Source of the DNA: Pseudomonadota bacterium
GTDB lineage: Bacteria; Chloroflexota; UBA6077; JAJPHF01
NCBI GenBank assembly: GCA_021325365.1
Contig: JAJPHF010000139.1
Span: forward strand, 62,001-126,000
Length of the DNA: 64,000 bases
Direction: 5' to 3'
The translations under genes were made by a program, and so were the position numbers. The notes under the pieces are model-generated. The model saw nothing but the letters and a program-made list of their open reading frames with translations. It was not told the origin of the DNA and searched no databases. This document shows, in pieces, positions 4,259-23,437 of the stretch; the stretch's first letter is position 1; every line of letters starts with the position of its first letter.

Positions 4259-6340
4259 ATGGCAGAGGGAGACGCCAGGTTCGCGGCTCTCTACGAGGTC
4301 GGGCGCTACATCAACTCCTCACTCGATCTCGCCGAGGTGCTCGAACTAGCGATAGACACTATCCTCCGCGTGACCGGCGCCGAGCGCGGCTTCATCGTGT
4401 TGGCGGACCCCGACTCCAGCGAACTGCGGGTGCAGATCGCCCGCAACTTCGGTCGCTCCCCCACGGACACCCCCAGTTTCGAAGTTAGCCGCAACATCGT
4501 ACACAGCGTCGTCGAGCGCGGCACGCCCTTGCTGGTCAACGATGCCCTCAGCGACCCGAGCTTCCAGCGGTTCCAGAGCGTGCTGGTGCTGGGGCTGCAC
4601 TCCGTCCTGTGCGCGCCCTTGCGGGTCAAGGGCCGGACCATCGGCGCGATCTACGTGGACAACCGCCGCCGGCTGGGCTTGTTTACCCAGAGCCACCTCG
4701 ATTTGCTCGTCGCCTTTGCCGACCAGGCGGCCATCGCGATTGAAAATGCCCGGCTGTACCAGGGCTTGCAGCAGCGGCTGCGGGAGATCGCGGACCTCCA
4801 GGCGTATCAGGAGAACGTCTTCCGCAGCGTGGCGAGCGGCATCGTCGCCCTCGATCACGCCGGCTGCATCACCAGCTTCAACACCGCGGCGGAGGTCATC
4901 TTCGGCGCGCCGGCCGAGCAGGTGCTGGGCCGCGGGTATGACGCCGTGCTAGGCCCGGATATGGCCCAGTTCGTGCGCGCCTATCTGGCCGGCGCGCCAT
5001 TCTCCGAGCAGCCGGCCGACTCGGGGCAGGACATCGCTTGCGAGATCCCCGGGCGCGGGCGGATCTATCTTAGCGTGCGGGCGACGCCGCTGCGCGCAGC
5101 CGACGAGCGGGCGGGCGGCCTGGTACTCGCCATCGAGGATCAAACCGAGAATCGCCTGTTGCGGAAAGCGCGCCAGGCTGAGGAAGAGAAGCGTCGCTTG
5201 CTCAGTCGCTTCTTCGCGCCGGCGGTCCTGGAGGAGATCCTGCGCAATCCGGAGGCAGCCGCCAACCTCGCCGGCGTCCGCAAAGAACTGACGGTGCTCT
5301 TCGCGGACCTGCGCGGGTACACGACCTTGAGCGAACATCTCCCGCCCGAGCAAATCGTCACGCTGCTCAACTGTTGTCTGGATCTGGCCACGCGGGCCAT
5401 CCGGACCTGTAACGGCACCGTCGACAAATACATCGGTGATGCCGTGTTGGCTCTCTTCAACGCCCCGACCGAGCAGGCAAACCATCCGGAGCTGGCGATC
5501 TGGGCCGCCCTGGCGCTGCAGGGCACGAGCGCGCGCTTGCGCCACGTGGTGGGGCGGCACGTCCGCTTCGGGATCGGCTTGAACACGGGCGAGGCCGTGG
5601 CCGGTTATATCGGCACGCCCGAGCAATTGAGCTACACTGCGATTGGAGACGCGGTGAACGTGGCCGCTCGCCTGCAGGCCAGTGCCGCGCCGGGCGAGGT
5701 GCTGATCAGCGAGGCCACCTACCGCCGGGTGCAGCACGTCTTCGAGGCGCAATGCTTAGGGCCGCTAGAGGTCAAGGGACGCAGCGAGCCGGTGACCGCC
5801 TACCGCGTGCTGGGGCCGCGGGTCGCGGCCGCGGCCCCAGAAGATCGGCTCGCCCCTACGGCTCGCCACTGCCCCGCGTGCGGCGCGACGCTCCCGGCGC
5901 GACAGCTTCCGTGTCCGGCCTGCCATGGCGGCGCCGCGCCGGCCGATGCCGACTACCTCGAGCTGCCCGGGGGTCAGCGCTATGCGTTGGTCCGGAACAC
6001 GGTGACGCTCGGCAGAGGCGCCGAGAACGACTTGATGCTAGCGGACACGGCGATCTCGCGGCGGCACGCCCGGCTGCAGCGGCTCTCTCAGGGCTGGCTG
6101 CTCATCGACTGGAAAAGCAGCAACGGGACGCGGGTCAACGGAATCTTAATCGACGGGCCGTATCTTCTGGAGGACGGTGACGTAATCGTGTTGGGCGATC
6201 GGAGACTGGTCTTCCGTAGCGCTCCCCAGTCAGAGCCGTCAGCCGTCGACGCGAAGCACGAGGCCGCCGCGACCGTGCTGGGTCGCCTGGCGTTTCTGGC
6301 GACGCCCGCCGCGCCGTTGCGGGGCGCGGGGGGTGAGTAG
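4259..6340 (+). CDS. GAF-PAS-adenylate/guanylate cyclase-zinc ribbon-FHA protein
   Basis: This 693-residue cytoplasmic signalling protein has, in order: a GAF domain (about 3-170), a PAS domain (about 190-290), a class III nucleotide cyclase domain (about 335-520), a zinc ribbon with two CXXC pairs (about 540-560) and an FHA domain (about 575-660). The cyclase looks active: metal ligands Asp350 and Asp394, base-selecting Lys390 (DKYIGD) and Thr460, and transition-state residues Asn467 and Arg471 (NVAARL). Lys plus Thr favours ATP, so cAMP is the expected product. FHA domains bind phosphothreonine, which links it to the kinase at 20909-23437. The next gene, 56 bases on, has three cyclic-nucleotide-binding domains. 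The start is the first ATG; its ribosome binding site is weak. Confidence 0.85.
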   Translation: MAEGDARFAALYEVGRYINSSLDLAEVLELAIDTILRVTGAERGFIVLADPDSSELRVQIARNFGRSPTDTPSFEVSRNIVHSVVERGTPLLVNDALSDPSFQRFQSVLVLGLHSVLCAPLRVKGRTIGAIYVDNRRRLGLFTQSHLDLLVAFADQAAIAIENARLYQGLQQRLREIADLQAYQENVFRSVASGIVALDHAGCITSFNTAAEVIFGAPAEQVLGRGYDAVLGPDMAQFVRAYLAGAPFSEQPADSGQDIACEIPGRGRIYLSVRATPLRAADERAGGLVLAIEDQTENRLLRKARQAEEEKRRLLSRFFAPAVLEEILRNPEAAANLAGVRKELTVLFADLRGYTTLSEHLPPEQIVTLLNCCLDLATRAIRTCNGTVDKYIGDAVLALFNAPTEQANHPELAIWAALALQGTSARLRHVVGRHVRFGIGLNTGEAVAGYIGTPEQLSYTAIGDAVNVAARLQASAAPGEVLISEATYRRVQHVFEAQCLGPLEVKGRSEPVTAYRVLGPRVAAAAPEDRLAPTARHCPACGATLPARQLPCPACHGGAAPADADYLELPGGQRYALVRNTVTLGRGAENDLMLADTAISRRHARLQRLSQGWLLIDWKSSNGTRVNGILIDGPYLLEDGDVIVLGDRRLVFRSAPQSEPSAVDAKHEAAATVLGRLAFLATPAAPLRGAGGE

Positions 6341-6396: not shown

Positions 6397-9300
6397 ATGT
6401 TTGAAACCAGAAAGCGCGATAGCGCCCCGAACGAGGCCGAGACTGACCTGATCGAGGTGCGTCGGCCGGCCGCTCCCACGACGGAAATACGCTGGCGCCG
6501 CGATAGCTCCTTTACGATCGGGCGCCTGTCCCAGAACGCCCTGGCGCTGAGCGACGACCTCACCGTCTCGGGCTGTCATGCCGAGATCCAATACGTCGGC
6601 ACAATCGCGGTGATTCACGACCTCGGCAGCACCAACGGAACGCTTCTCAATGGGGAGCCGCTGCAGGTTCCGACGCGGCTGGCGCCGGGGGACCGCATCA
6701 ATGTGGGCAGCGCCGAGCTGGTGTTCAATCCGCCCTCGCCCACGGCCGCGGGGCCCCCGCCGCGGGCGCACGACGCCGACGTCTTCTACGTGCGCTGCGC
6801 GGACGCGCTCCCCTTCGTCTTCCGGTGGGACCGCGGCCAGCCGCTCAAGATCGGCCGGCTGGCCGTGAACACTCTGGCGTTCACCGATGATCGCGACGTC
6901 TCGCGCCGGCACGCGGAGATTCAGTACGTCGGGGATGCGGCCACGATCCAGGACGTGGGGAGCGCCAACGGGACCTTCCTCAACGGGGAGCCGGTGCAAG
7001 GGCCAGCGCGCCTGGCGCCCGGGGACCGCATCGGCATGGGCAACACTGAAATGGTGTTCCAGCCCGAGCTGGCCACCCCAGCGGCCGAAGCGTGGCTCGA
7101 GGTGCAATCCGGACCGGCACAACAGCCGGTGCCCGCGGAAATCCGCCTGCCCGCGGCGCGCTGCGTCTTCTTGGGGCGCGGTCCTCACTGCGACGTGGTA
7201 CTCCCGGACCCGGCCGTGGCCGAGAGACATGCCTGTATCCAGACGTATTGCGGCGACTACGTCTTTACCGATCTCTGTAGCTCGACGGGCACGTTCCTGA
7301 ACGGGCGGCGCATCTTCGGCGGGATCCGGCTCAAACCCGACGACGTGCTGCAACTGGGCAGCATGCGCTTTCGCTTCAAGTGCCCTCAGGCGGCGCCGCC
7401 GGCCGCGTTGGCCGGCGGCGAGGCCGATCCCTCCGCATCGGCCACCCTGCACAGCCTCCCCCCCTTCAACCAGCTGCCGACGGAGCTGCTTGCCGCGCTG
7501 GCCGAGAACTGCGAGTGGATCACGGTCGACGCGGGTGCGGACCTGATTCCGGACACGCGACGCGAGCTGCCGGCCGCGCTGTACATACTCGCCGAGGGCA
7601 AGGCGCACGTCGTCGGCACGGTAGGTGTCCGTCACCAGCAAGCCTACGTCGTGGCCGAGCTGCGGCGGGGCGATCTCATCGGGGAGCGCGCGCTGATCAC
7701 CGGCCGGCCGTACTCGCGCCGCGTGGTCGCCGATACCCCGCTTCGCGCGCTACGGATCACGCGGGCTGCGTATGCCGAGCGCTGGGCGACGAATCCCCGG
7801 CTCCGCGCCTTGTTCGAGGAGCAGCTGCCGCAGCTCGCGCTCCGCCGCCAGCTCGAGCGCACGCTGCTCCTCCGCTGCTTGCCTGCGGACGTCGTGGACC
7901 GCTTGCTCCCCCGCCTGCACGCGGTCGCCTACGCGGCCGGCGACCAGCTCGCTCAGCGCGGCCAGCCGAATGATCGCTTCCTGCTCCTCGTCGCGGGCCG
8001 CGCGCGCGTCCAGGCCCTGCGGGGGGAGCGAGAGGTCGCGCTGGGCCAGATCGGCGCGGGCGAATGTGTAGGCGAGGCGATCGCGGCCCCCGATGGCGTC
8101 TATTCTTCGACCGTCATCGCCGAGACGCCCGTCGAGGCCTACAGCCTCTCCCGGGCGGACTTCGAGGCGGCGACCGCCGGGCACCCGGCGCGGACGGGCC
8201 TGCTCAGCGGCAGCCTGGAGTTGACCCCGCCCAACCTTCTGCTCGAGAGCATCGCGCCCTTCAACGCGCTGCCACCCCAGCTCGTCACCCGGATCGCCAC
8301 ACACATGCGGTTGAAGCGATTCTATGCTGACGAAGTCGTTATCGAGCAGGACGATGTGGCGAGCGCGTTCTACATCGTCTTGAGCGGCACGGTGCAGGTC
8401 TCGTTTCACACCGCGTCCGGCGAAGAGAAAGTTATCACCACCCTGGGGCCCGGCCAACACTTCGGCGAAGCCGCCCTCCTCACCGGCGAAGGCCGCAATG
8501 CGCGCGTGCGCGCACTGGAGGATTGCCAGCTCTGGGCGCTCTACAAAGACGGGTTCGAAGAGGCCCTGGAGTATGGCCGAGCCTATCAGCTCGATGCCTA
8601 CTTCGGCCAAGACCTCCGGATGCGCTCGCGCCCGCGCCGCCTCGCGGAGATCGAGATCGTTCGCCAGTCTGGCGGGGCCGACGCGGGTTACATCTTGCAC
8701 CGGCCCAGCAGCAAGAGCTACCTGCGATTGTCCGAGCAGGGCATGTTCGTGTGGGGCCTCCTCGACGGCGACCACACGATCAATGACCTGTGCGTGGCCT
8801 ACCTGGCCAAATACCACAACTTCGATCTCGAGCTGATCGCCAGCACCGTGGCGCAGCTGCAGGCGCTGGGATTCGTCGAGGTTCCGCCAGTGGACCTGCA
8901 CCGAGGGGCGGTCGACCAGCGAGCGCCCGCCTGGCGCCGCGCCTTGACCACCGCCTTCCAGGTCCTGACCTGGCGGAAAGAATTCTCGCAAGCCGATGCC
9001 TGGTTCGACGCCCTGTACCGCCAGGGGGGGCGGGTCTTGTTCGCGCCGCTGGCGCTGGCGCTGCTCGGGCTTCTGGCCGTGGCCGGGCTGGCGGCCTTTG
9101 GCTACCTGTTGCTCGTGGAGCTGCGGGGCAGCCCGCCCGGGCGTGAGATGATGCAGGGGGCTGCCCTGGCGATCGTGCTGCTCGGCTTCCTGCTCATTAC
9201 CGCGCTTCACGAAGTTGGGCACGGGCTGACCTGTAAGCACTATGGGCGTCGAGTCAACGGCGCGGGCCTGGGAATCGCCTATTTGTTTCCCTATGCCTTC

Positions 9301-9870
9301 GTGGGCACGACGGACATCTGGATGGCCGGCAAAGGGGCGCGCATGGCCGTGAGCGCCGCCGGCCCGTTCGTCAACCTGCTGACCGGCGCCGTCTGCGCCC
9401 TGGCGGCCCTGGCCGTGTCCGACGTCACGATCCGCGCTGCCCTGTTCAGCCTCGCCGGCATCTCCTATCTCCTGGTCATCAGCAACCTGCACCCCTTTAT
9501 GGAGCTCGACGGGTACTACATCCTGGTCGACTGGCTAGAGATGCCGTCGCTTCGCAAGCGCGCGCTGCGGTTTCTCCGCCGTGACCTGTGGCGATGCTTG
9601 CGGGCGCGTCGCTTCGACCGCGAAGAGCGCATCCTGGCCGCTTTCGGAGCCGCCGTCCTGCTGTTCACGGTGCCCATGGGGCTGGGGCTCGTGGTGTTCT
9701 TCCACGACCTGTTCGTGAATCACCTGAGCGCGCTGCTGTCCGTCGGCGGCAGCGAGCTGCTGGGGTGGGCCTGCGGCGCGCTCGTTCTGCTAGCGTTCCT
9801 GATCCCATTCGCCTTTGAGCTGGAGCTTATCTCGCCTCAGCCGTTGACGTTGCACGGGCGAACGCAATAG
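6397..9870 (+). CDS. Triple-FHA, triple cyclic-nucleotide-binding, PqqD-like, M50 membrane protease fusion
   Basis: This 1157-residue protein has three FHA domains (about 30-112, 128-225, 230-330), three cyclic-nucleotide-binding domains (about 350-475, 483-600, 615-728), a PqqD-like domain (about 745-832) and an M50 site-2-protease-like membrane domain to the end. The protease site is His938-Glu-X-X-His942 (HEVGH) with Asp1038 in MELDGYY; about six hydrophobic segments surround it. Domains 1 and 3 keep the glycine-glutamate and arginine features of the cNMP phosphate cassette; domain 2 lacks the arginine and may be structural. PqqD-like domains hold RiPP leader peptides, and M50 proteins occur in RiPP loci (YydH in the yyd operon). 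I infer a regulated leader protease or maturation hub. It lies between the cyclase and, 24 bases on, the permease. Confidence 0.8.
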   Translation: MFETRKRDSAPNEAETDLIEVRRPAAPTTEIRWRRDSSFTIGRLSQNALALSDDLTVSGCHAEIQYVGTIAVIHDLGSTNGTLLNGEPLQVPTRLAPGDRINVGSAELVFNPPSPTAAGPPPRAHDADVFYVRCADALPFVFRWDRGQPLKIGRLAVNTLAFTDDRDVSRRHAEIQYVGDAATIQDVGSANGTFLNGEPVQGPARLAPGDRIGMGNTEMVFQPELATPAAEAWLEVQSGPAQQPVPAEIRLPAARCVFLGRGPHCDVVLPDPAVAERHACIQTYCGDYVFTDLCSSTGTFLNGRRIFGGIRLKPDDVLQLGSMRFRFKCPQAAPPAALAGGEADPSASATLHSLPPFNQLPTELLAALAENCEWITVDAGADLIPDTRRELPAALYILAEGKAHVVGTVGVRHQQAYVVAELRRGDLIGERALITGRPYSRRVVADTPLRALRITRAAYAERWATNPRLRALFEEQLPQLALRRQLERTLLLRCLPADVVDRLLPRLHAVAYAAGDQLAQRGQPNDRFLLLVAGRARVQALRGEREVALGQIGAGECVGEAIAAPDGVYSSTVIAETPVEAYSLSRADFEAATAGHPARTGLLSGSLELTPPNLLLESIAPFNALPPQLVTRIATHMRLKRFYADEVVIEQDDVASAFYIVLSGTVQVSFHTASGEEKVITTLGPGQHFGEAALLTGEGRNARVRALEDCQLWALYKDGFEEALEYGRAYQLDAYFGQDLRMRSRPRRLAEIEIVRQSGGADAGYILHRPSSKSYLRLSEQGMFVWGLLDGDHTINDLCVAYLAKYHNFDLELIASTVAQLQALGFVEVPPVDLHRGAVDQRAPAWRRALTTAFQVLTWRKEFSQADAWFDALYRQGGRVLFAPLALALLGLLAVAGLAAFGYLLLVELRGSPPGREMMQGAALAIVLLGFLLITALHEVGHGLTCKHYGRRVNGAGLGIAYLFPYAFVGTTDIWMAGKGARMAVSAAGPFVNLLTGAVCALAALAVSDVTIRAALFSLAGISYLLVISNLHPFMELDGYYILVDWLEMPSLRKRALRFLRRDLWRCLRARRFDREERILAAFGAAVLLFTVPMGLGLVVFFHDLFVNHLSALLSVGGSELLGWACGALVLLAFLIPFAFELELISPQPLTLHGRTQ

Positions 9871-9894: not shown

Positions 9895-12261
9895 ATGCTG
9901 CTCAAGAAAGCCTGGCGCGACCTCTCCGCGCGCAAGCTGCGCACCCTACTGGTAGTGCTGAGCGTCGCCATCGGCGTGTTCGGGGTCAGCGCGATCAAGA
10001 TCCTCGGCGACCAATTCGAGCGGGCCGCGCTCGAGCAATACGCTGCCTCGCGCCCCCCCGACCTCACGATGGACACCACTCCAGTGTCCACCGAGCAGAC
10101 TGACAAGCTCGCCAGCCTGGACAACGTTCAGTCGGTCGAGCGGCGCATTGCCAGCACCGCGCGCTGGCAGCCCCCGAGCGGCGATCGGAAGGAGAGCATT
10201 GCCGTCCAGGGTGTCGGCGATTTTCACGCCGACGCCACCCTCGACCGCGTGCGGGTGACCCGGGGCGCCCTGCCGAGCGCCGGGGAAGTGCTGTTCGAGA
10301 AGGGGTCACGCCAGAAGTACGGGCTGCAGATCGGTCAGGAAGTCACTCTGACCAGCGGCGACCGCGAGCAGACCTTCAAGATCTCGGGCTTCGGCGATAA
10401 CCCAAACGTGATGAGCGCGGCAGCCGTGGGCTTCGCCTCCGTGTGGCTGAACCAGGACGATGCAGAGAACCTGCTCCAGCTGGGTGGCGCGAACCGCCTG
10501 CTGATCAAGATGAAGCGCCAAGACACGGCAGACGTTCGTGCGGATACAGAGAAGCGTGTTCGCGAGTCCCTGGAAGGCGACGACGTCACGATAATCCGGA
10601 GCGACGTGCGCGACCCGGCGGTGGTGCCCGGCAAGGACACTCTAGACTCGCTGCGTACGCTGTTGCTGGTGTTCGCGATTCTGGGCGCTCTCACCAGCGG
10701 GCTGCTGGTCATCAATACCGTGTGTACGGTCATACTCGAGCAGCGGCCACAGATCGGCTCCATGAAGGCCGTCGGCGGTACGATGGCGCAGGTCATGCGC
10801 ATCTATCTGATGCTGGCACTGTTGTATGGCATTTTGGGTACCGCGCTTGGCCTGGCGGCGGCGATCGGCTTCAATCTCTTAGCGAGCGGTCTCCGCGCCG
10901 CGGCGCTGGATGAAGCGCCGACGGCGCTCAGCGTCAGCGCCGGGGCCGTGGCGCTGGCTGTTGGCGTGGGCGTCGGCATCTGTCTCCTCGCGGCGCTGAT
11001 TCCGAGCTGGCTCGGGTCGCGCGTCACCATCCGCGAGGCGATCGTATCGTACGGTCTCGCGTCGGACTTCGGCCGGACCCTGTGGGACCGCGCGATCGCG
11101 CGACTGACCATCCTGCCGCAGGCAGCGATTCTCGCCTCACGGAACCTGTTTCGGCAGACCAACCGCGCGCTGTTCACCATCCTCGGCCTGGCGGTAACGA
11201 CCGCCCTCATCATCGCCGTGCTCGCCGCGCTCAGCTCGCTGTTCACGCGCCTGGAGGTGTCCAGCAAAGCCCTCAAGGCCGACCTGGGATTTGCCTTCGA
11301 CGCGCCGGTCGAGGACGAGAAGGTCGATACCGCGCTCCAGGACACCACGGGCATCGACCGCCGCGAGCTGTGGATCGTCTCGTCGGCGAAGTCGGACGGC
11401 AAGGTCGTGTCCGTCACCGGCCTGCCCTGGAACACGGACCTGTTCGATCGGAGCACGGTGCAGGGCGGCGGGCGGTGGTTCGGCGAGGATCGCGACGACG
11501 AGGTAGTGATCACGCAGCGGCTCGCCACGCGGCGCGGGCTGAAACTGCAGGATCGGATCGAGCTGCAGAGCGGCTCCCACCCGACGCAAGCGTGGACGAT
11601 TGTCGGCATCGTCCCAGGCGCGGGAGCGGACGCGCTCGCGCCCGAAGGCGCCGTCTATGCGTCACGGGAGGCCGTGCGCAAGCTGCTCGATTTCCCCGAT
11701 GGACGCGGCAACTATCTGTACGCGCGCCTGGTCGACCATAGGGACGCCCAGGTCGATGCGAAAGCGACCGCGATTTCGGACGCGCTGGCGAACGCCGAGC
11801 TGTCCAATACGCCAGTGAAGATGTATGAGCAAGAGGAGAACAACCAGCGCGCCTTCATGGTGTTCATCCTGGTGTTTCTCTTGATGATCCTGATCGTGTC
11901 GGTAGTTGGCGCGCTAGGGCTGTTCAGCACCCTCACCATGAACGTGCTAGAGCGGCGGCGGGAGATCGGCGTGATGCGCTCGGTTGGCGCTTCGACGGGC
12001 ACGATCCTCTGGACCTTCCTGTTGGAGGGCTTGCTCCTGGGGATGGTCGGCTGGGGCCTGGGCGTCGTATTGGGCGGGCCGGCAGGCCGGTTGTTGGTCG
12101 ACTTCCTGAGCGACAAGCTGTTTGCCATGGAGTATGCCGCGGTGCCAGCGAGCGCCCTGGTGACGCTGATCGGCATCCTGGGCGTGGCTTTCGTGGCCAG
12201 TATCGGCCCGGCGATGGTCGCGGCCCGGATGAAGATCGCGGAAATCCTTCGCTACGCCTGA
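9895..12261 (+). CDS. FtsX/MacB-like ABC transporter permease
   Basis: This 788-residue membrane protein has an N-terminal transmembrane helix (about 15-35), a MacB-like extracytoplasmic domain (about 40-250), an FtsX-type helix bundle (about 255-375), then a second cycle: a helix near 420-445, a second extracytoplasmic domain and a C-terminal FtsX bundle (about 660-785). This duplicated layout is normal for the long MacB/LolCE-like permeases that move lipids, peptides or antibiotics. It has no ATPase domain of its own; the only MacB/LolD-type ATPase nearby is the FHA-ABC protein at 14768-16315, so I infer that the two form one transporter for the peptide. An AGGA ribosome binding site precedes the ATG. 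Confidence 0.85.
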   Translation: MLLKKAWRDLSARKLRTLLVVLSVAIGVFGVSAIKILGDQFERAALEQYAASRPPDLTMDTTPVSTEQTDKLASLDNVQSVERRIASTARWQPPSGDRKESIAVQGVGDFHADATLDRVRVTRGALPSAGEVLFEKGSRQKYGLQIGQEVTLTSGDREQTFKISGFGDNPNVMSAAAVGFASVWLNQDDAENLLQLGGANRLLIKMKRQDTADVRADTEKRVRESLEGDDVTIIRSDVRDPAVVPGKDTLDSLRTLLLVFAILGALTSGLLVINTVCTVILEQRPQIGSMKAVGGTMAQVMRIYLMLALLYGILGTALGLAAAIGFNLLASGLRAAALDEAPTALSVSAGAVALAVGVGVGICLLAALIPSWLGSRVTIREAIVSYGLASDFGRTLWDRAIARLTILPQAAILASRNLFRQTNRALFTILGLAVTTALIIAVLAALSSLFTRLEVSSKALKADLGFAFDAPVEDEKVDTALQDTTGIDRRELWIVSSAKSDGKVVSVTGLPWNTDLFDRSTVQGGGRWFGEDRDDEVVITQRLATRRGLKLQDRIELQSGSHPTQAWTIVGIVPGAGADALAPEGAVYASREAVRKLLDFPDGRGNYLYARLVDHRDAQVDAKATAISDALANAELSNTPVKMYEQEENNQRAFMVFILVFLLMILIVSVVGALGLFSTLTMNVLERRREIGVMRSVGASTGTILWTFLLEGLLLGMVGWGLGVVLGGPAGRLLVDFLSDKLFAMEYAAVPASALVTLIGILGVAFVASIGPAMVAARMKIAEILRYA

Positions 12262-14742: not shown

Positions 14743-14767
14743 CGGTAAGACTTTGGACGAGGTAGCG

Positions 14768-16358: not shown

Positions 16359-18122
16359 GTGCTCAACCGGATCTGGCGTGGCTGGCGAGCAATGACCAGG
16401 CGCCCCGGGAGGCCGGCCGTCAGGCACGCCGGTCGCGCGTCGGCCCTCCTGGTGGTAGCGCTCCTCGCCCTATACCCGGCGGGCCTGGCGCAGGCGACGA
16501 CCGGCGGTCCGGCGGCGGCTCCGCCCGAGAGGGCCGGGCGCCTGGCGGGGAGTCGCGCGACGACGCCCCCGGCGTCCGTGCAGGACGCCCCCGCAAGGCA
16601 GATCGACCCCAACGTGGTCGTGCAGATCACCAGTCCCACCCCCGGGCAGCACTTGAGCGGGCCTGTGGACATCACGGGGTACGCGGCCGACACGCGCAGC
16701 CAGGACGGCTCCGGCATGAATGAGCGCGACATCCAGCTCTATCTCAACGATTCGTCGGACCCCTGGAACATCTTCGACTATGCCGTTGGGGGCCGGGACA
16801 GCCCCGACGCGGCGGCCGCGCTCGGGCCGCAGTTCAGCCAGGCCGGCTTTTGGGACGCCTGGGAGACCTGCACCTTCCCCGAGGGGCCGTATAAGCTGAT
16901 CGTCTGGGTGTCGAGCAGGGCGACGGAGGGAGCGCGGAACTTCGCCAGCGTGGACGTCTACATCGACGCCTGCCCGCAGGGCACCATGATCGGCCAGGCG
17001 AACTTCGATTCCGAGCCCGGTGGCGTCTATACCATTCGCCTGAATGGTCCGGAGACGCGGCAGCACTCGCTCGACCCGATCTTTGCCGACTTCGCGGCCG
17101 GGATCGACGCGCGATGCCCGGATGCTACCGTCAACTGTACCTACGGCCTCCAGTTCCGCGAGCTGCCGGGGCCGCAGGGCACCAACACCGACTCGTTCTA
17201 TCGCTTCACGGTTGACCCCACCGACGGCACCTTCACCCTCGGCTACTCGCCGCCGGGCGACGCTCCGATCGTGGCACTCGTGCCGTGGACGCCGTCGCCC
17301 ACGATCGCCCAGGGCAGCGCGACCAACCGGCTGGCCGTCATCGTGCAGGGCAACTGGCTGCGCCTGTTCATCAACGGGCAGCAGGTGGGCGACACGCGGG
17401 ACGATCGCCGGCCCTGGGGCCAGATCGGGTGGGTCGCCGAGACGACAGCCTCTCGCACCGTCGAGGCCCAGTTCGACAACTTCAGCGTCTCCACGCCGGG
17501 GCCGGCCGAACAATTGGCGCCGCTCTTCCCCGGGGCGGGCGTCGGCCCGGCCCCAGCGGCCGGCCGCGTCCTGCTCCACGACGACTTCAGCGACCCGTCC
17601 AGCGGGTGGCCCCGCCAGTCCAGCGACCCGTCCGCGCGTCGCGTCGGCTACGATCACGGCGAGTACGACATCGCGCGGATGCCGGGCGACGTGGGGGCGC
17701 CGTACGTCACGCGGTCGGACCGCTTTGGCGACTTCCAGGTAGAGATTGACGCGCGGCTCGTCCCGCCGACCGAGAACAGCTACCTCTACCTCGACTTTCG
17801 GCGGCAGGATGATGGGAGCCACTACTCCTTCATGGTCGACCCCAATGACAGCACCTTCATGCTGCGCCGGAACGGCCCCAATAGCGGCGTCAACCTGATC
17901 CCGTGGACCAGCGCGCCGGCGATCCAGGGCGGCTCCGCACGCAACCGCCTGGGCGTCCGCGCGCAAGGTCCAGACATCACGCTGCTCGTGAACGGCCAAG
18001 AGGTGGGCCACGTGCAGGACGGCACGTTCTCGGAAGGCACGTTAGCCTTTGGCGTCGACAGCTTTAACGACGGCCCGGCCGAGGGCCGCTTTGGGAACCT
18101 CCTGGTCACCGCCGTCGACTGA
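16359..18122 (+). CDS. Secreted protein with Ig-like region and two concanavalin-like repeats
   Basis: This 587-residue protein starts at a GTG with a perfect GGAGGTG site. A signal peptide follows (basic start, hydrophobic stretch LLVVALLALYPAGLAQA about 30-47). An Ig-like region (about 85-190, ITSPTPGQHLSGPVDITGYA) is followed by two related jelly-roll domains (about 195-385 and 405-587). Each repeat has a FxVDPxDxTFxL strand, a VPWT or IPWT strand and a LxxNGQxVG strand. The fold resembles LamG/3-keto-disaccharide-hydrolase-like domains, often involved in glycan binding. I see no catalytic residues. Its place between the ABC ATPase and the RiPP radical SAM gene suggests a surface role in peptide activity, immunity or display, but this is not proven. 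Confidence 0.65.
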   Translation: MLNRIWRGWRAMTRRPGRPAVRHAGRASALLVVALLALYPAGLAQATTGGPAAAPPERAGRLAGSRATTPPASVQDAPARQIDPNVVVQITSPTPGQHLSGPVDITGYAADTRSQDGSGMNERDIQLYLNDSSDPWNIFDYAVGGRDSPDAAAALGPQFSQAGFWDAWETCTFPEGPYKLIVWVSSRATEGARNFASVDVYIDACPQGTMIGQANFDSEPGGVYTIRLNGPETRQHSLDPIFADFAAGIDARCPDATVNCTYGLQFRELPGPQGTNTDSFYRFTVDPTDGTFTLGYSPPGDAPIVALVPWTPSPTIAQGSATNRLAVIVQGNWLRLFINGQQVGDTRDDRRPWGQIGWVAETTASRTVEAQFDNFSVSTPGPAEQLAPLFPGAGVGPAPAAGRVLLHDDFSDPSSGWPRQSSDPSARRVGYDHGEYDIARMPGDVGAPYVTRSDRFGDFQVEIDARLVPPTENSYLYLDFRRQDDGSHYSFMVDPNDSTFMLRRNGPNSGVNLIPWTSAPAIQGGSARNRLGVRAQGPDITLLVNGQEVGHVQDGTFSEGTLAFGVDSFNDGPAEGRFGNLLVTAVD

Positions 18123-18223
18123 CGTCCCGGCGTGAACGGCTTGCGGCAGCGGTGGGCGGAGTCGGCTCCTCCCAGCGCGCGACCGTAGCGACAAGCGGCG
18201 ATGTAGGTAGAGGAGCCGATCCG

Positions 18224-18784
18224 ATGCTTCGCATAGGCCTCGCGTTCGTGCTGGCCACGGTGACGCTGGGTTTGCCGTTGCGCGTCCACGCGCAAGGCCT
18301 AGACCTCGCCAGCGTGGTCTTGACCGAGTCCGACGTGCCAAGCGGCCTGCGGCTGAGCCGGGACCACAGCGGCGCGCAGGAACGCAACGGCGCCCCCGGC
18401 TATCAAGTGACCTTCGAGGCGGACCCGAGCCAGGTTGGCCCCGGCAGTGGCGGCATCGCCGTCGTGATGAATCTGGTGGCGCTGCCGAGCGATCCAGTGG
18501 CCGGTCTCGACGAGATCAGTCAGAGCGCGAAGCAAAGCCTGCCGGGCACGGCCACCGATCTGGCCCCGCCCGCGGTCGGCGAGGAGAGCCGCGCCTTCAC
18601 CAGCAACGCCGGCTTCGGCCCCTTCGCGATGACGGTCGCCACGACCACGTTTCGCCGTAACGGCGTCGTCGCCGGCGTTACCGTCATGAGCGCCGGGGGC
18701 CAGCCCCAAATCGAGCAGTGCTTGCGGCTGGCCCAGATCGTGGATAGCCGCCTGATGGCGGCGGGCAACCGATCGGGCACCTAA
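18224..18784 (+). CDS. Small secreted protein of unknown function
   Basis: This 186-residue protein starts at an ATG with an AGAGGAG site about 10 bases upstream. Residues 1-24 form a signal peptide ending VHAQG. The mature part is rich in small and acidic residues, has no Cys pairs and no motif I can assign; it has the pattern of a compact alpha/beta protein. It lies 101 bases after the LamG-like gene and 28 bases before the radical SAM gene, so it is very probably in the same transcript. An immunity protein, a chaperone for the exported peptide, or a receptor are possible roles, all inferred from position only. Confidence 0.55.
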   Translation: MLRIGLAFVLATVTLGLPLRVHAQGLDLASVVLTESDVPSGLRLSRDHSGAQERNGAPGYQVTFEADPSQVGPGSGGIAVVMNLVALPSDPVAGLDEISQSAKQSLPGTATDLAPPAVGEESRAFTSNAGFGPFAMTVATTTFRRNGVVAGVTVMSAGGQPQIEQCLRLAQIVDSRLMAAGNRSGT

Positions 18785-18812: not shown

Positions 18813-20741
18813 GTGAAGCGCGCGCTGCTGGTGAGCATGCCGTTCGCGACGACGGCGAGTCCCTCACTCGGGCTCAGTCTGCTCAAGGCATCGTTGGTAC
18901 GCGAGGGCCTTCCCTGCGACCTGCATTATCTCAACTTGCTGTTTGCCCGGCGGATTGGCGTCACCGCCTACGAGCGCATTAGCAACTTCAGCCCCGACGT
19001 GCTGTTGGGCGATTGGCTCTTCGCCGCCAGCTTGTTCGGCGACCAGGTCCCGCCCCCGGCGCGCTACTTCGCCGAGGTGCTCCACCGCTGCGCCTTCCTG
19101 CCCTTCGAGCACGAGCGCGCCGAGGGCTACAGCCCGGAGCGCGATGGCGAGATTCTCGAGATCCGCGCCCAGGTGGCGGCGTACCTGGACGAATGCCTCG
19201 CCAGCGTGCCCTGGGAGGACTACGCGCTGGTCGGATTCACCAGCACGTTCCAGCAGAACGTGGCAACCCTGGCGCTCGCTCGGCGGCTCAAGGAGCGCTA
19301 CCCGCACCTCGTCGTCGTCCTCGGCGGTGCCAACTGCGAAGGCGAGATGGGCCTCGCCATCCACCGCCTCTTCCCGTTCGTCGACTACGTGTGCTCGGGC
19401 GAGGGCGACCTGGTCTTTCCCCGCCTCGCGCGGCACGTCCTAGAGGGCCAAACGCCCGGGGAGTTGCCGGGGATCATCTCCCGCGCGGCTGGCCGAACGG
19501 TGGGCTCGGCCGCGAGCGTGCCGGTGATGGACCTCGACTCCCTGCCCGTGCCCGATTACAGCGATTTCATCGCGCAGCGATCGATTCTGGGCGCCGAGGC
19601 GATCCCCGACTGGCACCTGCCGCTCGAGACGGCGCGCGGCTGCTGGTGGGGCGAGAAATCCCACTGCACCTTCTGCGGCCTCAACGGCGCCACCCTGCGG
19701 TTTCGCGCCAAGTCGGCGGAGCGCGCACTGGCGGAACTGGCGGCGCTGGTGGAGCAGTACCAGCCGCCGCGGGTCGCGGCCGTCGACAACATTCTGGACC
19801 TGGGCTACTTCCGCGACGTCCTGCCTCGCCTGGCCGAGATGCAGCTAGGCGTAGAGTTGTTCTACGAGACGAAAGCCAATCTCCGGAAGGAGCAGATCCG
19901 GCTGCTGCGCGAGGCGGGAATTAGCCGCATCCAGCCCGGGATCGAGAGCCTGAGCACCAACGTGCTGCGGCGGATGCGGAAAGGCGTGAGCGCCTTACAG
20001 AACATCCAGCTCTTGCGCTGGTGCTCCGAGTACATGGTACAGCCGTATTGGAGCCTGCTCGCCGGCTTCCCGGGCGAAGACCCGGCCGACTATGCGCGTC
20101 AAGCGGAGCTGGCCCCGTTGCTGACCCACCTCCCGCCGCCCATCGACGTGGCGCCGGTCCGCCTCGACCGCTTTAGCCCGCTGTTCGTGAACAAGGAGCA
20201 TAACGGCATCTGCAACGTCCACGCCGCCCACGCCTATCGCTATGTGTACCCGTTCCCAGAGCAGGACCTCGACCGCCTGGCCTATTATTTCGATTTCGAG
20301 TACGCCGACGGCCGAGCCCCGGTAAGCTACATCGGCGAGCTGCGGCGGCAGGTCGAGGTCTGGGCGAACCCGGCCAACCAGTGCCAGCTCGTGGCGCTCG
20401 TCGAGGGCGACGCCCTGGTGGTGCGCGACACGCGGCTGGTCGCGGTGCAGAAGGAGCATCGGCTGACGGGGCTCCAGCGGGCGCTGTACGAATACTGCGA
20501 CCAGGCGCGCACCCGCGCCGAGATCGATCGCCACCTAGCCTTGCTGACGGCGGACGAGAGCGCGGCGGCGGCCGCCGTCGACGAGGCGCTCGGCGCGCTC
20601 CTGACGGCGAAGTTGCTCCTGCACGAGGACGGGCGCTATCTTAGCCTGGCGGTCTGGGGCGGCTACCAGGTCGATTTCGTGACCCAGCAGCTAGGCCTTG
20701 CGCTCGGACTGCTGCCGGAGCCCGCGGCCGCGAGCGGGTAA
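18813..20741 (+). CDS. RiPP maturation radical SAM protein (B12-type, CX7CX2C)
   Basis: This 642-residue enzyme carries the hallmark GCWWGEKSHCTFCGLNG: Cys277-X7-Cys285-X2-Cys288. That motif and the N-terminal cobalamin-binding-like domain (about 1-235) define the 'RiPP maturation radical SAM protein 1' group, whose studied members are peptide C-methyltransferases. The radical SAM domain spans about 270-480. The last 110 residues look like a winged-helix or PqqD-like peptide-binding tail. Start is GTG with a GGGAG site. It is the strongest evidence that the cluster makes a RiPP. Trp C-methylation is a plausible reaction on this core, though the modified residue is not predictable from sequence. 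Confidence 0.88.
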   Translation: MKRALLVSMPFATTASPSLGLSLLKASLVREGLPCDLHYLNLLFARRIGVTAYERISNFSPDVLLGDWLFAASLFGDQVPPPARYFAEVLHRCAFLPFEHERAEGYSPERDGEILEIRAQVAAYLDECLASVPWEDYALVGFTSTFQQNVATLALARRLKERYPHLVVVLGGANCEGEMGLAIHRLFPFVDYVCSGEGDLVFPRLARHVLEGQTPGELPGIISRAAGRTVGSAASVPVMDLDSLPVPDYSDFIAQRSILGAEAIPDWHLPLETARGCWWGEKSHCTFCGLNGATLRFRAKSAERALAELAALVEQYQPPRVAAVDNILDLGYFRDVLPRLAEMQLGVELFYETKANLRKEQIRLLREAGISRIQPGIESLSTNVLRRMRKGVSALQNIQLLRWCSEYMVQPYWSLLAGFPGEDPADYARQAELAPLLTHLPPPIDVAPVRLDRFSPLFVNKEHNGICNVHAAHAYRYVYPFPEQDLDRLAYYFDFEYADGRAPVSYIGELRRQVEVWANPANQCQLVALVEGDALVVRDTRLVAVQKEHRLTGLQRALYEYCDQARTRAEIDRHLALLTADESAAAAAVDEALGALLTAKLLLHEDGRYLSLAVWGGYQVDFVTQQLGLALGLLPEPAAASG

Positions 20742-20908: not shown

Positions 20909-23437
20909 ATGGAACCGTCCGCACACCCGACTCGAATCAATGCCTTAGAAGGCCAGAAGCTCGGCCAGTACCAGATCGTCCAGATGATTGGCCGCGGCGG
21001 GATGGCTGTCGTCTATAAGGCCCTGCAGCCGTCGCTGCACCGATACGTGGCCATCAAGGTCTTGCCCCCGTATCTGGTCCAAGAGGAGGAGTTCCGCGCG
21101 CGCTTCCAGCGCGAGGCGGAAACCGTGGCGCGTCTTGACCATCCCAATATCCTGCCGGTCCATGACTACGTGCAGGAAGGCGACGTCGCCTACATCGTCA
21201 TGCCGCTGGTCACGGGAGGCACGCTCGGCGAGTGGCTGCAGCAATCGCCCCCGCTGGCACGCGTGGTGCCGGTGCTTAGCCAGATCCTGAGCGCCCTGGG
21301 CCACGCCCATACCCGCGTGCCGCCCATCGTCCATCGTGACATCAAGCCAAACAACATCCTGATGGGCGAGCGGGATCGGCCGCTGCTCACCGACTTCGGC
21401 ATTGCCAAGATCCTCGAGCCATCCTTGTATGCTACCCGCACGGGCACGCTGATTGGCACGCCCGAGTATATGGCTCCCGAGCAAAGCCAGGGTGGCCCCA
21501 TTGATGCCCGCACCGACCTGTATGCGCTGGGAATCATCCTCTTTCAGATCCTCACCGGTCGGCTGCCTTTTGAAGGGCAGACGCCGGTCATGGTCCTGAT
21601 GCAGCACGTCCAGGTGGAAGCCCCTTCGCCGCGCGCCCTCAATCCCGGGTTGTCGCCGGCGTGGGAGGAGGTCATCCGCCGGAGCCTGGCGAAGTCGCCG
21701 GTGGACCGCTACCCGAACGCCGACGCCATGGACCAGGCGATTCAGGCGGCCTGGCGCCAGGTGCAACGGGAGATGGACACCGCCAAGGCCGCGAAGCCGA
21801 GCCCCGCGTTGACCGTGCAGCAGGCCGCCGGCAGCGTGGCCCACGGTGACGAGGCGCTCGCGGCCGAGCGGTTCACCGAGGCCCGCCGCTACTACGAGGA
21901 AGCGCTGCGGCTAGCTCCGGGGCTCGTCGACGCGCTAAGCGGCCTCGAGCGCGTGCAGCAGGCCCAGACCGTCGCCGGCTTGTACCATTCGGCGCGCGCC
22001 GACATCGCCGCGGAGCAGTGGGACGACGCGGCGGCCAAGCTGGAGCAAGCGGCCACGCTCGCGCCGACGTACAAGGACGTCGTTGCGCTGCGCCAGATGG
22101 TCGCCCTGCAGCAAGAGCGGACGCACGCGCCCCTCGGCGACGTCCAGACCGACCAGCCCCTGCCAGCCCGGCCCACTACGCCCCTGCCGGTCCGGCCGGA
22201 GGCAGATGGCACCAAGGGCGGCATCCGCGTCCCCCCCGACGCTCACACGCCGCCGGACGACCGCCTCGCGCAGGAGGAGATGGTCGGCCCAGATCGCCAG
22301 TCGGCCGGGCCGCCGACTCGCCCGCCACGGGAGGTGGCCGAGAAGCGGGCCGGGCCGCCGACTCGCCCGCCGCGGGAGGTGGAGCGCCCACCAGTCGAAC
22401 CGGAGCGCCGCGACGACTCGCTGGACACTCAGCGGGACGAGCGCGGCCGGCCATATCGACGGATCGCCGGCCTGGTTGCTCTCATTGCGGTGGTCGCTGC
22501 AGTCGGCGTCTGGTGGATGGTCCATCCACGTCCGAGCCCGGAGCCGACGACCATTTCCGCAGACCCCACTGCAACCCCAGCGCCGAGTGCCACCCCCGAG
22601 CCGACCGCCGCCGACCTGTTCCCCGCCTGCCAGAGCGCCGTCGACGCGACAAGCTGGGATGACGCGGCCGACGCGTGCGAGAAAGTGCGCGCCAAGGATG
22701 CCAGCTATCCCGGGCTGGCGGACGCGCTCGACGCCACTTACCTGGGCCTTGGCAAGAAGCAGCTGGCCCAAGGGGGACCGGTAGATGCGGCGCTAGCGTA
22801 CTTCCAGCAGGCGCTCGCGGCCAATCCCGACGACGCGGACGCCGAGGCGGAGCGGTCCAGGGCTGCCGAATTCCAGGAAGGCGCCGCCGCGCTCGACGCG
22901 GGCAACTGGTCCGTGGCCGCCGAGAAGCTGGGCGACGTCTACGCCGCGGCCCCCGACTATCTGGACAGCGCCGGGGATGGCCGCGTGAAGGCGAAGCTGT
23001 TCGCGGCGCGGCTGGGCTGGGGCCAGGCCCTGCTCGACGCGGGCGATTACGCGAACGCGCTGCAGCGCTGTGAGGACGCGCTGGCGCTAGATGCCGACAG
23101 CCCCGAGGCCACGACCTGCAAGACGACCGCGCTCGCCGCGCTCGCTACCCCGACGCCCAGGCCGGCGCCTGTCGAACCGGTGGTGCGCCAACCAACCGCC
23201 GTCCCACCGCGGCCGCAGCCCCAGCCAGAGCCGCCGCGGCCGACTCCGGTCCCGCCGCGGCCGCAGCCGCAGCCGCAGCCGCCGCCGCGGCCAACTCCAG
23301 TCCCGCCGCGGCCACAGCCCCAACCGCAGCCACCGCCGCCACCGCGGCCGACTCCGGTCCCGCCACGGCCGCAGCCGGCGCCACCCGCACCGCCGACGCG
23401 GGCGCCGATAGTGGCACCGCCCACGCGCGCGCCGTAG
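20909..23437 (+). CDS. Transmembrane Ser/Thr protein kinase (PknB-type) with TPR-like regions and proline-rich tail
   Basis: This 842-residue protein has a full kinase domain (about 18-290): glycine loop GRGGMA (28-33), Lys50 in VAIK, HRDIKPNN with Asp144, DFG at 162-164 and an APEQ motif. Helical TPR-like repeats follow (about 300-395), then a Pro- and Arg-rich linker, a single transmembrane helix (about 516-536) and an outer region with further TPR-like repeats. The C-terminus is a PQ-rich repeat, possibly spanning or binding the cell wall. Such kinases phosphorylate threonines that FHA domains read; six FHA domains are encoded upstream. It is 167 bases after the radical SAM gene and may have its own promoter. 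Confidence 0.88.
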   Translation: MEPSAHPTRINALEGQKLGQYQIVQMIGRGGMAVVYKALQPSLHRYVAIKVLPPYLVQEEEFRARFQREAETVARLDHPNILPVHDYVQEGDVAYIVMPLVTGGTLGEWLQQSPPLARVVPVLSQILSALGHAHTRVPPIVHRDIKPNNILMGERDRPLLTDFGIAKILEPSLYATRTGTLIGTPEYMAPEQSQGGPIDARTDLYALGIILFQILTGRLPFEGQTPVMVLMQHVQVEAPSPRALNPGLSPAWEEVIRRSLAKSPVDRYPNADAMDQAIQAAWRQVQREMDTAKAAKPSPALTVQQAAGSVAHGDEALAAERFTEARRYYEEALRLAPGLVDALSGLERVQQAQTVAGLYHSARADIAAEQWDDAAAKLEQAATLAPTYKDVVALRQMVALQQERTHAPLGDVQTDQPLPARPTTPLPVRPEADGTKGGIRVPPDAHTPPDDRLAQEEMVGPDRQSAGPPTRPPREVAEKRAGPPTRPPREVERPPVEPERRDDSLDTQRDERGRPYRRIAGLVALIAVVAAVGVWWMVHPRPSPEPTTISADPTATPAPSATPEPTAADLFPACQSAVDATSWDDAADACEKVRAKDASYPGLADALDATYLGLGKKQLAQGGPVDAALAYFQQALAANPDDADAEAERSRAAEFQEGAAALDAGNWSVAAEKLGDVYAAAPDYLDSAGDGRVKAKLFAARLGWGQALLDAGDYANALQRCEDALALDADSPEATTCKTTALAALATPTPRPAPVEPVVRQPTAVPPRPQPQPEPPRPTPVPPRPQPQPQPPPRPTPVPPRPQPQPQPPPPPRPTPVPPRPQPAPPAPPTRAPIVAPPTRAP
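23201..23407 (+). repeat. Tandem repeats coding the proline-glutamine-rich kinase tail
   Basis: Four in-frame units begin at 23201, 23249, 23300 and 23357 (about 48, 51, 57 and 51 bases). Each codes a variant of VPPRPQPQPQPPPRPTP. Unit lengths differ by whole codons, as expected of slippage under selection for frame. Confidence 0.8.

What the first reader, a model, noticed from the sequence alone, without database searches (positions are those of the whole stretch)
4259..23437. RiPP system with built-in cAMP and phosphothreonine signalling
Seen: ten consecutive plus-strand genes combining a leader-type precursor, two radical SAM enzymes, a PqqD-M50 protease, an ABC ATPase and permease, a class III cyclase, three cyclic-nucleotide domains, six FHA domains and a transmembrane Ser/Thr kinase. 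Known: precursor, radical SAM enzyme, M50 protease and ABC pair resemble the Bacillus yydFGHIJ epipeptide operon. Inferred: maturation or export is controlled by cAMP and by kinase-FHA phospho-recognition. I know of no described RiPP system with this layer.
Basis: partly seen in the sequence, partly recalled or inferred. Interest (0 to 1): 0.93.

Follow-up and report, generated by a model that had tools for sequence, protein, structure and literature searches.

The report
Peptide cluster wired to cAMP signalling
A bacterial gene cluster for a small tryptophan-rich peptide also encodes a predicted cyclic-AMP-making enzyme, a predicted protein kinase, and a predicted peptide-cutting protease fused to cyclic-nucleotide-binding and phosphate-reading domains, so the cell would likely use its own internal signals to decide when the peptide is matured and exported.

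Summary
In detail: ten consecutive + strand genes at 4259-23437 encode an Os1348/NHLP-type precursor (likely start 12929), a SPASM radical SAM enzyme, a B12 radical SAM C-methyltransferase, an FHA3-cNMP3-PqqD-M50 protein, an FHA2-ABC ATPase, an FtsX-type permease, a GAF-PAS-cyclase-FHA protein, a Ser/Thr kinase and two predicted secreted proteins. The FHA-cNMP-PqqD-M50 fusion recurs in 9 listed database proteins (the window's own included) and 6 Chloroflexota genomes. Genome G001 has eight of the ten proteins at 47-72% identity, but on separate contigs, the cyclase apart, no C-methyltransferase found. More widely, Os1348 peptides go with cyclic-nucleotide genes: of 60 loci taken nearly in rank order, 29 have a cyclase and 8 an M50/cNMP gene within 500 bp; all 38 of 38 genomes with the PqqD-M50 protein have Os1348 hits, against 54 of 362 without (lineage-confounded). 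The kinase/FHA arm is restricted: kinases 5/60 vs 1/20 controls, FHA 0/60. Most likely the peptide is cut by a cAMP- and phosphothreonine-gated protease and exported by an FHA-ABC transporter (gating inferred). Partial precedents: TOMM kinase/cyclase, cyc_nuc_ocin, Rv1747-PknF. New variant of a known kind.

The parts
4259..6340 (+). GAF-PAS-class III nucleotide cyclase-FHA protein, 693 aa
   Evidence: Pfam; best sequence match among solved cyclases CyaB 3r5g; 62% identical GAF-PAS-cyclase in G001 without the FHA part
6397..9870 (+). FHA x3 - cNMP x3 - PqqD - M50 membrane metalloprotease, 1157 aa
   Evidence: FHA2 residues S169 R170 R171 H172, N191 G192 T193, cNMP3 residues F689 G690 E691 ... 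R700 N701 A702 and H938 E939 H942 invariant in 8 of 8 rows
9895..12261 (+). FtsX/MacB-type ABC permease, 788 aa
   Evidence: Pfam; 48% identical orthologue (cut by the contig end) directly downstream of the M50 fusion in G001
12452..12480 (+). promoter-like site TTGACG-17-TACAAT upstream of the precursor
   Evidence: Consensus scan, (1 found, mean 0.1 in shuffles); not evidence of function
12929..13222 (+). Os1348/NHLP-clan precursor peptide, 97 aa, Trp-rich C-terminus DSKSWWIVIWRWFSWW
   Evidence: NF038399 63.2 bits (cutoff 40); RBS; 5 database relatives plus 2 in G001 with the same kind of core
13183..14742 (+). radical SAM/SPASM peptide maturase (open frame; start uncertain, overlaps precursor end)
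   Evidence: PapB family 213 bits, below cutoff 340; 5wgg best solved match by sequence; 66% identical copy beside two precursors in G001
14753..16315 (+). FHA x2 - ABC ATPase (LolD/MacB-like), 520 aa; weak zinc-ribbon-like N-terminus below Pfam cut-off
   Evidence: 57% identical in G001; same domain order directly next to the M50 fusion in G288, G443-G446
16359..18122 (+). LamG/3-keto-disaccharide hydrolase-like protein, 587 aa, secreted by eye
   Evidence: Pfam; 61% identical protein between FHA2-ABC and kinase in G001
18152..18784 (+). protein of unknown family, 210 aa, secreted by eye
   Evidence: No Pfam/NCBIfam match at E 0.01; no relative in the loci fetched up; whole genomes not searched for it
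18813..20741 (+). B12-dependent radical SAM RiPP C-methyltransferase, 642 aa
   Evidence: TIGR03975 694 bits, cutoff 282; no match in G001 at E 1e-40
20909..23437 (+). Ser/Thr kinase (PknB-like) with a transmembrane segment (read by eye) and TPR-bearing C-terminal part, 842 aa
   Evidence: 72% identity over 86 aa to a kinase downstream of LamG in G001, cut by the contig end

Best explanation
The cluster encodes a Trp-rich Os1348-type peptide together with a predicted cyclase, a predicted kinase and a PqqD-M50 protein fused to FHA and cyclic-nucleotide-binding domains, and it most likely makes a modified peptide whose leader removal and export are switched on by cAMP and by phosphothreonine docking. 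Predicted steps: (1) the SPASM radical SAM enzyme cross-links the Trp-rich core (no Cys, so a carbon-carbon link rather than a thioether is expected) and the B12 enzyme C-methylates it; (2) the PqqD part of the M50 fusion binds the leader and the membrane metalloprotease cuts near the ..DxRxSK.. junction; (3) the GAF-PAS cyclase senses a cue and makes cAMP, which binds the third cNMP domain (the canonical one) and opens the protease; (4) the kinase phosphorylates partners that are then held by the canonical FHA domains of cyclase, protease fusion and ABC ATPase, assembling cyclase, protease and FHA-ABC/FtsX exporter at the membrane. Shown: gene content, fusions, conserved residues, recurrence and linkage. 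Inferred: every biochemical step and the gating.
For: Fusion in one polypeptide: FHA+cNMP+PqqD-M50 in 9 of 120 listed proteins, the window's own among them, and in genomes G001, G288, G443-G446. Ligand sites kept: FHA2 and cNMP3 motifs invariant in 8 of 8 aligned rows. Next-door FHA2-ABC ATPase in 5 of 5 of G288, G443-G446. Orthologues in G001: M50 fusion 50%, permease 48%, precursors 64 and 47%, SPASM 66%, FHA2-ABC 57%, LamG 61%, kinase 72% over 86 aa, with FHA2-ABC, LamG, kinase in the window's relative order and the two precursors beside SPASM. The FHA domain fused to the window's cyclase is a separate 157-aa gene directly upstream of FHA2-ABC in G001 (53.5% identity). P0002 (fusion, 74%) and P0124 (precursor, 78%) are both listed with a longest contig of 56,347 bp, which suggests that they are linked. 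Wider link: of 60 Os1348 loci, cyclase within 500 bp in 29 and M50/cNMP in 8, either in 37; any cyclase in 30/60 vs 2/20 control stretches, p 0.0014. Os1348 hits in 38 of 38 genomes with the PqqD-M50 protein vs 54 of 362 without (Fisher 4e-28); in 9 of the 12 outside the class of G288 the two genes lie on one contig within 5 kb (two of the nine, G070 and G285, by Os1348 hits just under the cut-off). A cyclase is the direct neighbour of an Os1348 gene in G288, G443, G444, G445 and 2.1 kb away in G446. Core more conserved than leader (0.75 vs 0.62 mean pairwise identity, core at least equal in 26 of 28 pairs, ungapped from the C-terminus).
Against: In G001 the cyclase is on a separate 3.4-kb contig next to a substrate-binding-protein-like gene and no TIGR03975 enzyme was found. 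In G288 and G443-G446 my profiles found no precursor or radical SAM gene near the M50-FHA/ABC pair. Kinases are not enriched at Os1348 loci (5/60 vs 1/20, p 1), FHA is at 0/60, and in those 60 the excess of cNMP (10/60 vs 0/20, p 0.059) and M50 (7/60 vs 0/20, p 0.18) is not significant against so few controls. 23 of the 60 have neither a cyclase nor M50/cNMP within 500 bp. The larger figure of 44 of 72 includes 8 loci fetched because they hold the M50 gene. The 29 cyclase cases are mostly one arrangement in related genomes. The 38/38 figure is lineage-confounded: 8 of 10 PqqD-M50-negative genomes listed for the class of G288 and present in the 400 also have Os1348 hits. cNMP1, cNMP2 and the third FHA lack canonical residues (partly by eye). 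The AlphaFold model is weak (pLDDT 65, pTM 0.37). No phosphodiesterase or phosphatase showed among the ten proteins, and no experiment exists.
Confidence: 0.47

Rival explanations
1. A signalling peptide circuit rather than an exported product: the Os1348 protein is the output or regulator of a cyclase/cNMP circuit, released at the membrane by regulated intramembrane proteolysis, and modification enzymes are lineage-specific extras.
For: At 60 Os1348 loci my two radical SAM profiles hit 6 (B12MT) and 0 (SPASM) (limited sensitivity); tails such as LDPRLSKSAGRGFI differ little between genomes; [DE]xRx[ST]K after the leader in 46 of 83 frames, shuffled mean 0.2, could be a kinase or protease site (inference).
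Against: The window's peptide has two dedicated radical SAM enzymes and an ABC pair; G120 has a TIGR03975 gene 175 bp from an Os1348 gene; Os1348 of Pseudomonas Os17 is antibiotic-related (PMC7726476).
Confidence: 0.28
2. Two neighbouring units: a RiPP operon (precursor, SPASM, B12 enzyme) set inside an independent kinase-FHA-ABC/M50 envelope-signalling module of the Rv1747-PknF kind, with no functional link to the peptide.
For: In G288 and G443-G446 the FHA-cNMP-M50/FHA-ABC pair stands without peptide genes found nearby; in G001 M50+permease, precursor+SPASM, FHA-ABC+LamG+kinase and cyclase lie on four contigs; 667-bp gap before the precursor.
Against: The M50 part carries a PqqD domain, and outside the class of G288 an Os1348 hit lies within 5 kb of it in 9 of 12 genomes; all six genomes with the FHA-cNMP fusion carry Os1348 hits over the cut-off; in G001 the M50-permease contig ends, and the precursor-SPASM contig begins, where the window's order would continue.
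Confidence: 0.19
3. Ordinary epipeptide- or daptide-like RiPP cluster with unusually many regulatory domains of no special meaning.
For: Same kinds of parts: precursor, radical SAM, M50, ABC pair.
Against: Family models are not met (YydH/LiaK 51 of 225 bits; daptide protease 146 of 300 bits); FHA2/cNMP3 ligand motifs invariant in 8 rows, the seven relatives being 50-65% identical to the window, speak against meaningless domains.
Confidence: 0.06

Closest known systems
Os1348 family NHLP-clan peptides (NF038399; Os1348 of Pseudomonas sp. Os17)
   Same: Leader domain model met (63.2 bits, cutoff 40); weak sequence match to the 85-aa PDB chain 6lk7, which I take to be Os1348; predicted modification genes next door
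   Different: The Os17 cluster as described in the passages seen has an acetyltransferase, a peptidase-like protein and a SagB-type dehydrogenase (PMC7726476); core differs
Epipeptide locus yydFGHIJ / epeXEPAB
   Same: Precursor, radical SAM, M50 protease, ABC ATPase and permease (layout of the known locus partly recalled)
   Different: M50 model score 51 of 225 bits; SPASM enzyme and B12 methyltransferase; FHA, cNMP, cyclase and kinase added
TOMM kinase/cyclase (TIGR03903) and the large Ser/Thr kinase beside NHLP-Burk TOMM precursors
   Same: Ser/Thr kinase and nucleotide cyclase next to NHLP-type precursors
   Different: There, by the model's name, one fused protein in azole-forming systems; here separate proteins scoring 135 and 27 of 706 bits, with radical SAM enzymes
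cyc_nuc_ocin (TIGR03896), bacteriocin-type transport-associated protein
   Same: cNMP part matches (54.6 bits)
   Different: Below cutoff 161; here fused to FHA and PqqD-M50
Rv1747-PknF FHA-ABC exporter and kinase of mycobacteria
   Same: Kinase-linked ABC transporter with two FHA domains (6cah among FHA matches; abstracts of PMC3908365 and PMC5549992 in the listing)
   Different: Permease here is a separate FtsX-type protein and the cluster holds a peptide precursor
CteB (5wgg) / PapB thioether SPASM maturases
   Same: 5wgg is the best solved match (name CteB recalled); PapB model 213 bits
   Different: Below cutoff 340; precursor has no Cys, so no thioether

Membership tests
Os1348/NHLP-clan RiPP precursor | NF038399 leader model above 40 bits | tested here: met
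   63.2 bits
Os1348/NHLP-clan RiPP precursor | peptide is actually modified and cleaved | not testable with these tools
   needs mass spectrometry
RiPP B12 radical SAM C-methyltransferase (TIGR03975) | model above 281.85 bits | tested here: met
   694.3 bits
Epipeptide (Yyd/Epe) | YydH/LiaK-type M50 (NF058609, cutoff 225) | tested here: not met
   51 bits
Daptide | daptide HExxH protease (NF041824, cutoff 300) | tested here: not met
   146.3 bits
Ranthipeptide (PapB) | NF047865 above 340 bits and Cys in the core | tested here: not met
   213 bits; no Cys in the precursor
TOMM kinase/cyclase system | TIGR03903 fusion above 705.75 bits | tested here: not met
   135.3 bits (kinase), 27.1 bits (cyclase), separate proteins
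cyc_nuc_ocin | TIGR03896 above 161.05 bits | tested here: not met
   54.6 bits
Kinase-FHA-ABC exporter of the Rv1747 kind | FHA domains on the ABC ATPase and a Ser/Thr kinase linked to it | tested here: met
   FHA2-ABC 14753-16315 and kinase 20909-23437; both with LamG between them in G001
Kinase-FHA-ABC exporter of the Rv1747 kind | ATPase and permease in one polypeptide (recalled for Rv1747) | tested here: not met
   permease is a separate protein at 9895-12261
Kinase-FHA-ABC exporter of the Rv1747 kind | kinase phosphorylates the transporter or a partner read by its FHA domain | not testable with these tools
   needs kinase assay

The most novel reading that the evidence does not exclude
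A second-messenger-gated RiPP machine: cAMP and phosphothreonine together license a PqqD-M50 intramembrane protease and an FHA-ABC exporter to release a Trp-rich radical-SAM-modified peptide, and Os1348 peptides across Chloroflexota are in general the output arm of cyclic-nucleotide signalling rather than free-standing bacteriocins.
Probability: 0.33. Interest if true: 0.92.

Novelty: new variant of a known kind. Interest (0 to 1): 0.75.

Why it matters
To my knowledge (recalled) RiPP pathways are described as controlled by transcription and by leader recognition. A protease that carries both leader-binding (PqqD) and cAMP/phosphothreonine-reading domains would put peptide release under direct second-messenger control. 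The wider pattern gives a specific, testable role to a family of small Chloroflexota proteins: many of them travel with cyclases or cNMP-PqqD-M50 proteins. It makes the question of what Os1348/NHLP peptides do in these bacteria directly testable.

Tried and rejected
Considered and set aside: true epipeptide, daptide, ranthipeptide, TOMM kinase/cyclase or cyc_nuc_ocin membership (all below NCBIfam cut-offs). My guess that Os1348 was named after Oscillochloris was wrong: it is from Pseudomonas sp. Os17. The kinase/FHA layer as a general feature of Os1348 loci was tested and not supported. A second 400-genome phylum search with another centre seemed to draw much the same sample (the handles listed) and added only the centre G443 to the matches. 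TIGR03975 as phylum-wide comparison: 10 of 400 genomes, of which 1 has the PqqD-M50 protein and 5 have Os1348 hits. No Rfam match at gathering score, no tRNA. Literature searches for this combination: (PqqD, M50, cyclic nucleotide-binding, Chloroflexi; 3 of 4 terms) returned 0 papers; the library lacks most subscription journals. Gene starts in fetched loci come from a crude GC-bias caller of my own, distances are between stop-to-stop frames, and domain hits there come from profiles built from window domains and partly iterated.

Rows dropped and choices: P0005 (short) was left out of alignment A2; A3 used 22 of 120 listed proteins. Os1348 loci: 60 (L179-L238) were taken nearly in the rank order; four ranked places (G106 C26, G353 C98, G084 C44, G040 C70) were skipped and L238 (G288) was picked out of order; if the four lack both neighbours the count would be about 37 of 64. 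A further 12 came from earlier calls: L130, L136-L138, L143, L144, L146, L147 fetched because they hold the M50 gene, L131-L134 from G001. L135 (below cut-off) was left out.
Full report
Observation. The window holds ten consecutive + strand genes at 4259-23437. Pfam and NCBIfam confirm the domains: GAF-PAS-cyclase-FHA; FHA x3-cNMP x3-PqqD-M50; FtsX/MacB permease; Os1348-type precursor; radical SAM/SPASM enzyme; FHA x2-ABC ATPase; a LamG-like and an unknown protein, both secreted by eye; TIGR03975 B12 radical SAM C-methyltransferase; PknB-like kinase. That is six FHA and three cNMP domains, as stated. The precursor starts most plausibly at ATG 12929 behind AGGAGGG, giving 97 aa that end in DSKSWWIVIWRWFSWW. 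A 667-bp gap with one promoter-like site precedes it. No whole genome is held for the window; those of the nearest relatives that bear an organism label are labelled Chloroflexota (P0009, P0124).

The peptide. The leader meets NF038399 (63.2 bits, cutoff 40). Five database relatives and two tandem copies in G001 share the Trp-rich tail. The last 15 residues are more conserved than the 75 before them (mean pairwise identity 0.75 vs 0.62; at least as conserved in 26 of 28 pairs; ungapped from the C-terminus). A conserved core argues for a fixed target or role rather than an arms race (inference). There is no Cys in the precursor, so the SPASM enzyme, although closest to thioether enzymes (5wgg; PapB 213 bits of 340), cannot make a thioether here; a Trp-centred carbon-carbon link is my expectation (inference). 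Os1348 itself is a small protein, dimeric in the crystal, with a role in antibiotic activity of Pseudomonas sp. Os17 (PMC7726476; abstract and passages seen).

The protease fusion. Searching with the PqqD-M50 part alone, 122 proteins reach E 0.001 and 120 are listed (candidates capped at 7996). Nine (P0001-P0009, P0001 being the window's own protein) also carry FHA and three cNMP domains in the window's order; 70 of the next 82 carry cNMP, often behind the protease instead of before it. In the eight aligned fusions the second FHA (SRRH...NGT) and the third cNMP cassette (FGE.ALLTG..RNA.V) are invariant, as is HE..H; FHA3, cNMP1 and cNMP2 look degenerate (partly by eye). That these motifs mean phosphothreonine and cyclic-nucleotide binding is recalled knowledge; sequence comparison gives GarA and, weaker, Rv1747 for the FHA and PKG/PKA-type proteins for the cNMP. 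M50 proteases act on epipeptides (EpeP) and pearlins (TglG, TmoG) according to PMC10885120 (passages). The AlphaFold model is weak (pLDDT 65.3, pTM 0.37); the 50 rows that Foldseek lists for it are PKG/PKA-type structures or complexes, with low TM-scores.

Synteny. G001 (the genome of L001, record title Chloroflexi bacterium isolate HOG27) has orthologues of eight of the ten window proteins (the cyclase): M50 fusion then permease up to a contig end; two precursors then SPASM on contig C32; a 157-aa FHA protein, FHA2-ABC, LamG protein and the start of the kinase on contig C228. The cyclase orthologue (62%, no FHA) sits on a 3.4-kb contig beside a substrate-binding-protein-like gene (by eye), and no TIGR03975 enzyme was found at E 1e-40; the 210-aa protein was sought only in fetched loci. 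The free FHA protein is 53.5% identical to the FHA domain of the window's cyclase, which suggests a gene fission or fusion that ties the cyclase to the ABC/kinase set (inference; other FHA domains reach 46-49% at most). P0002 and P0124 share a longest-contig length of 56,347 bp, a hint of linkage in another genome. G288 and G443-G446 have the M50 fusion directly followed by FHA2-ABC (5 of 5), with no precursor or radical SAM gene found near it by my profiles; in the same genomes an Os1348 gene lies directly beside a ~1230-aa cyclase at another place in four of five, and 2.1 kb from one, with two frames between, in G446. All five carry Os1348 hits over the cut-off, as does G001.

Wider association. 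In 400 Chloroflexota genomes 38 have the PqqD-M50 protein at E 1e-60 and 92 have Os1348 hits at E 1e-7, 76 of them over the cut-off. All 38 are among the 92; of the 362 others 54 are (Fisher 4e-28). This is lineage-confounded: 26 of the 38 belong to the class of G288, where 8 of 10 listed PqqD-M50-negative genomes that are also in the 400 have Os1348 hits. Outside that class it is 12 of 12, and in 9 of the 12 (G017, G070, G087, G096, G110, G173, G180, G285, G314) the two lie on the same contig within 5 kb (G070 and G285 by hits just under the cut-off). This adjacency, counted from the M50 side, is the strongest single link. For comparison TIGR03975, in 10 of 400, coincides with the PqqD-M50 protein once. 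Of the 30 M50 proteins whose loci were annotated, 28 have a fused cNMP and 3 a fused FHA domain.

Neighbourhoods. For 60 Os1348 loci taken nearly in rank order and 20 control stretches (19 of them from the same genomes): cyclase 30/60 vs 2/20 (p 0.0014), cNMP 10/60 vs 0/20 (p 0.059), M50 7/60 vs 0/20 (p 0.18), kinase 5/60 vs 1/20 (p 1), FHA 0/60 vs 0/20. Within 500 bp: cyclase in 29, M50/cNMP in 8, either in 37 of 60. With 12 more loci, 8 of them fetched because they hold the M50 gene, the figure is 44 of 72. Most of the 29 are one conserved double-cyclase arrangement in related genomes, so they are not independent events; the single-cyclase, cNMP-M50 and M50-cNMP arrangements are different ones.

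Verdict on the parts. The cyclic-nucleotide link of Os1348 peptides is well supported for cyclases and, from the M50 side, for the cNMP-bearing protease. The phospho link is supported by fusion (FHA on protease, ABC ATPase and cyclase) and by the kept order FHA-ABC, LamG, kinase in two genomes, but is confined to a small group. The radical SAM pair is the least constant part: SPASM is kept in G001, the B12 enzyme was not found there, although G120 has TIGR03975 175 bp from an Os1348 gene.

What is known. NCBIfam names a TOMM kinase/cyclase fusion (TIGR03903) and a bacteriocin-type transport-associated protein cyc_nuc_ocin (TIGR03896); the window's proteins score far below both cut-offs. Haft 2010 (PMC2887384, passages) mentions a large Ser/Thr kinase with Burkholderia TOMM precursors. 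A kinase-modulated FHA-ABC transporter is known in Rv1747-PknF (PMC3908365 and PMC5549992, abstract starts in the listing). PMC8939145 (passages) mentions adenylate cyclases among genes near some ATP-grasp RiPP loci. In the listings I saw no paper on a cNMP/FHA-bearing PqqD-M50 protease; only PMC7726476, PMC2887384, PMC8939145 and PMC10885120 were opened, as abstract or passages. I therefore file the cluster as a new variant of a known kind (RiPP cluster) with an unusual control layer.

Noticed in passing
L179-L204 and L207 (Chloroflexota genomes): Os1348 genes beside (within 500 bp of) a large cyclase protein, mostly ~1450 aa with two cyclase domains (AAA_16 and TPR too in L186), same strand; in L186 followed by HEAT-repeat and ribonucleotide-reductase-like proteins and preceded by a 390-aa radical SAM protein.
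   Followed up: partly
72 Os1348 loci: A [DE]xRx[ST]K motif follows the leader in 46 of 83 frames (shuffled mean 0.2); it could be a cleavage or phosphorylation site.
   Followed up: partly
L136, L137, L144: Os1348 gene facing or next to a cNMP2-PqqD-M50 gene in a shared gene neighbourhood that looks housekeeping-like by eye.
   Followed up: no
L147 (G070), 9163-18949: FHA-PqqD-M50 protein followed by a frame with a kinase-profile hit and three Os1348 leaders on long open frames (348 to 1029 aa), some overlapping.
   Followed up: no
L263-L266 (G445, G443, G444, G288): TIGR03975 enzyme next to a small protein; in L263-L265 one of 85-108 aa that looks Nif11-like by eye with a double-glycine leader and an alternating S/I/T core (e.g. 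VRSISITITIKF), in L266 a Gly-rich tail; apparently a different RiPP system.
   Followed up: no
G120 contig C8, 95712-97868: TIGR03975 gene 175 bp upstream of an Os1348 hit.
   Followed up: no
window 28430-39101: Stretch of lower third-position GC (0.59-0.74) than the genes before it (0.82-0.91), with glycosyltransferases; perhaps an acquired surface-polysaccharide island.
   Followed up: no
window 2645-3853, 47577-58241: Rieske protein (Pfam, 2645-3853), UbiD-type decarboxylase (Pfam, 47577-49028) and further Rieske-like frames by eye; perhaps an aromatic-compound gene set.
   Followed up: no
window 23600-24685: Protein with two DUF1259 stretches (PF07485) just downstream of the kinase on the other strand.
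   Followed up: no
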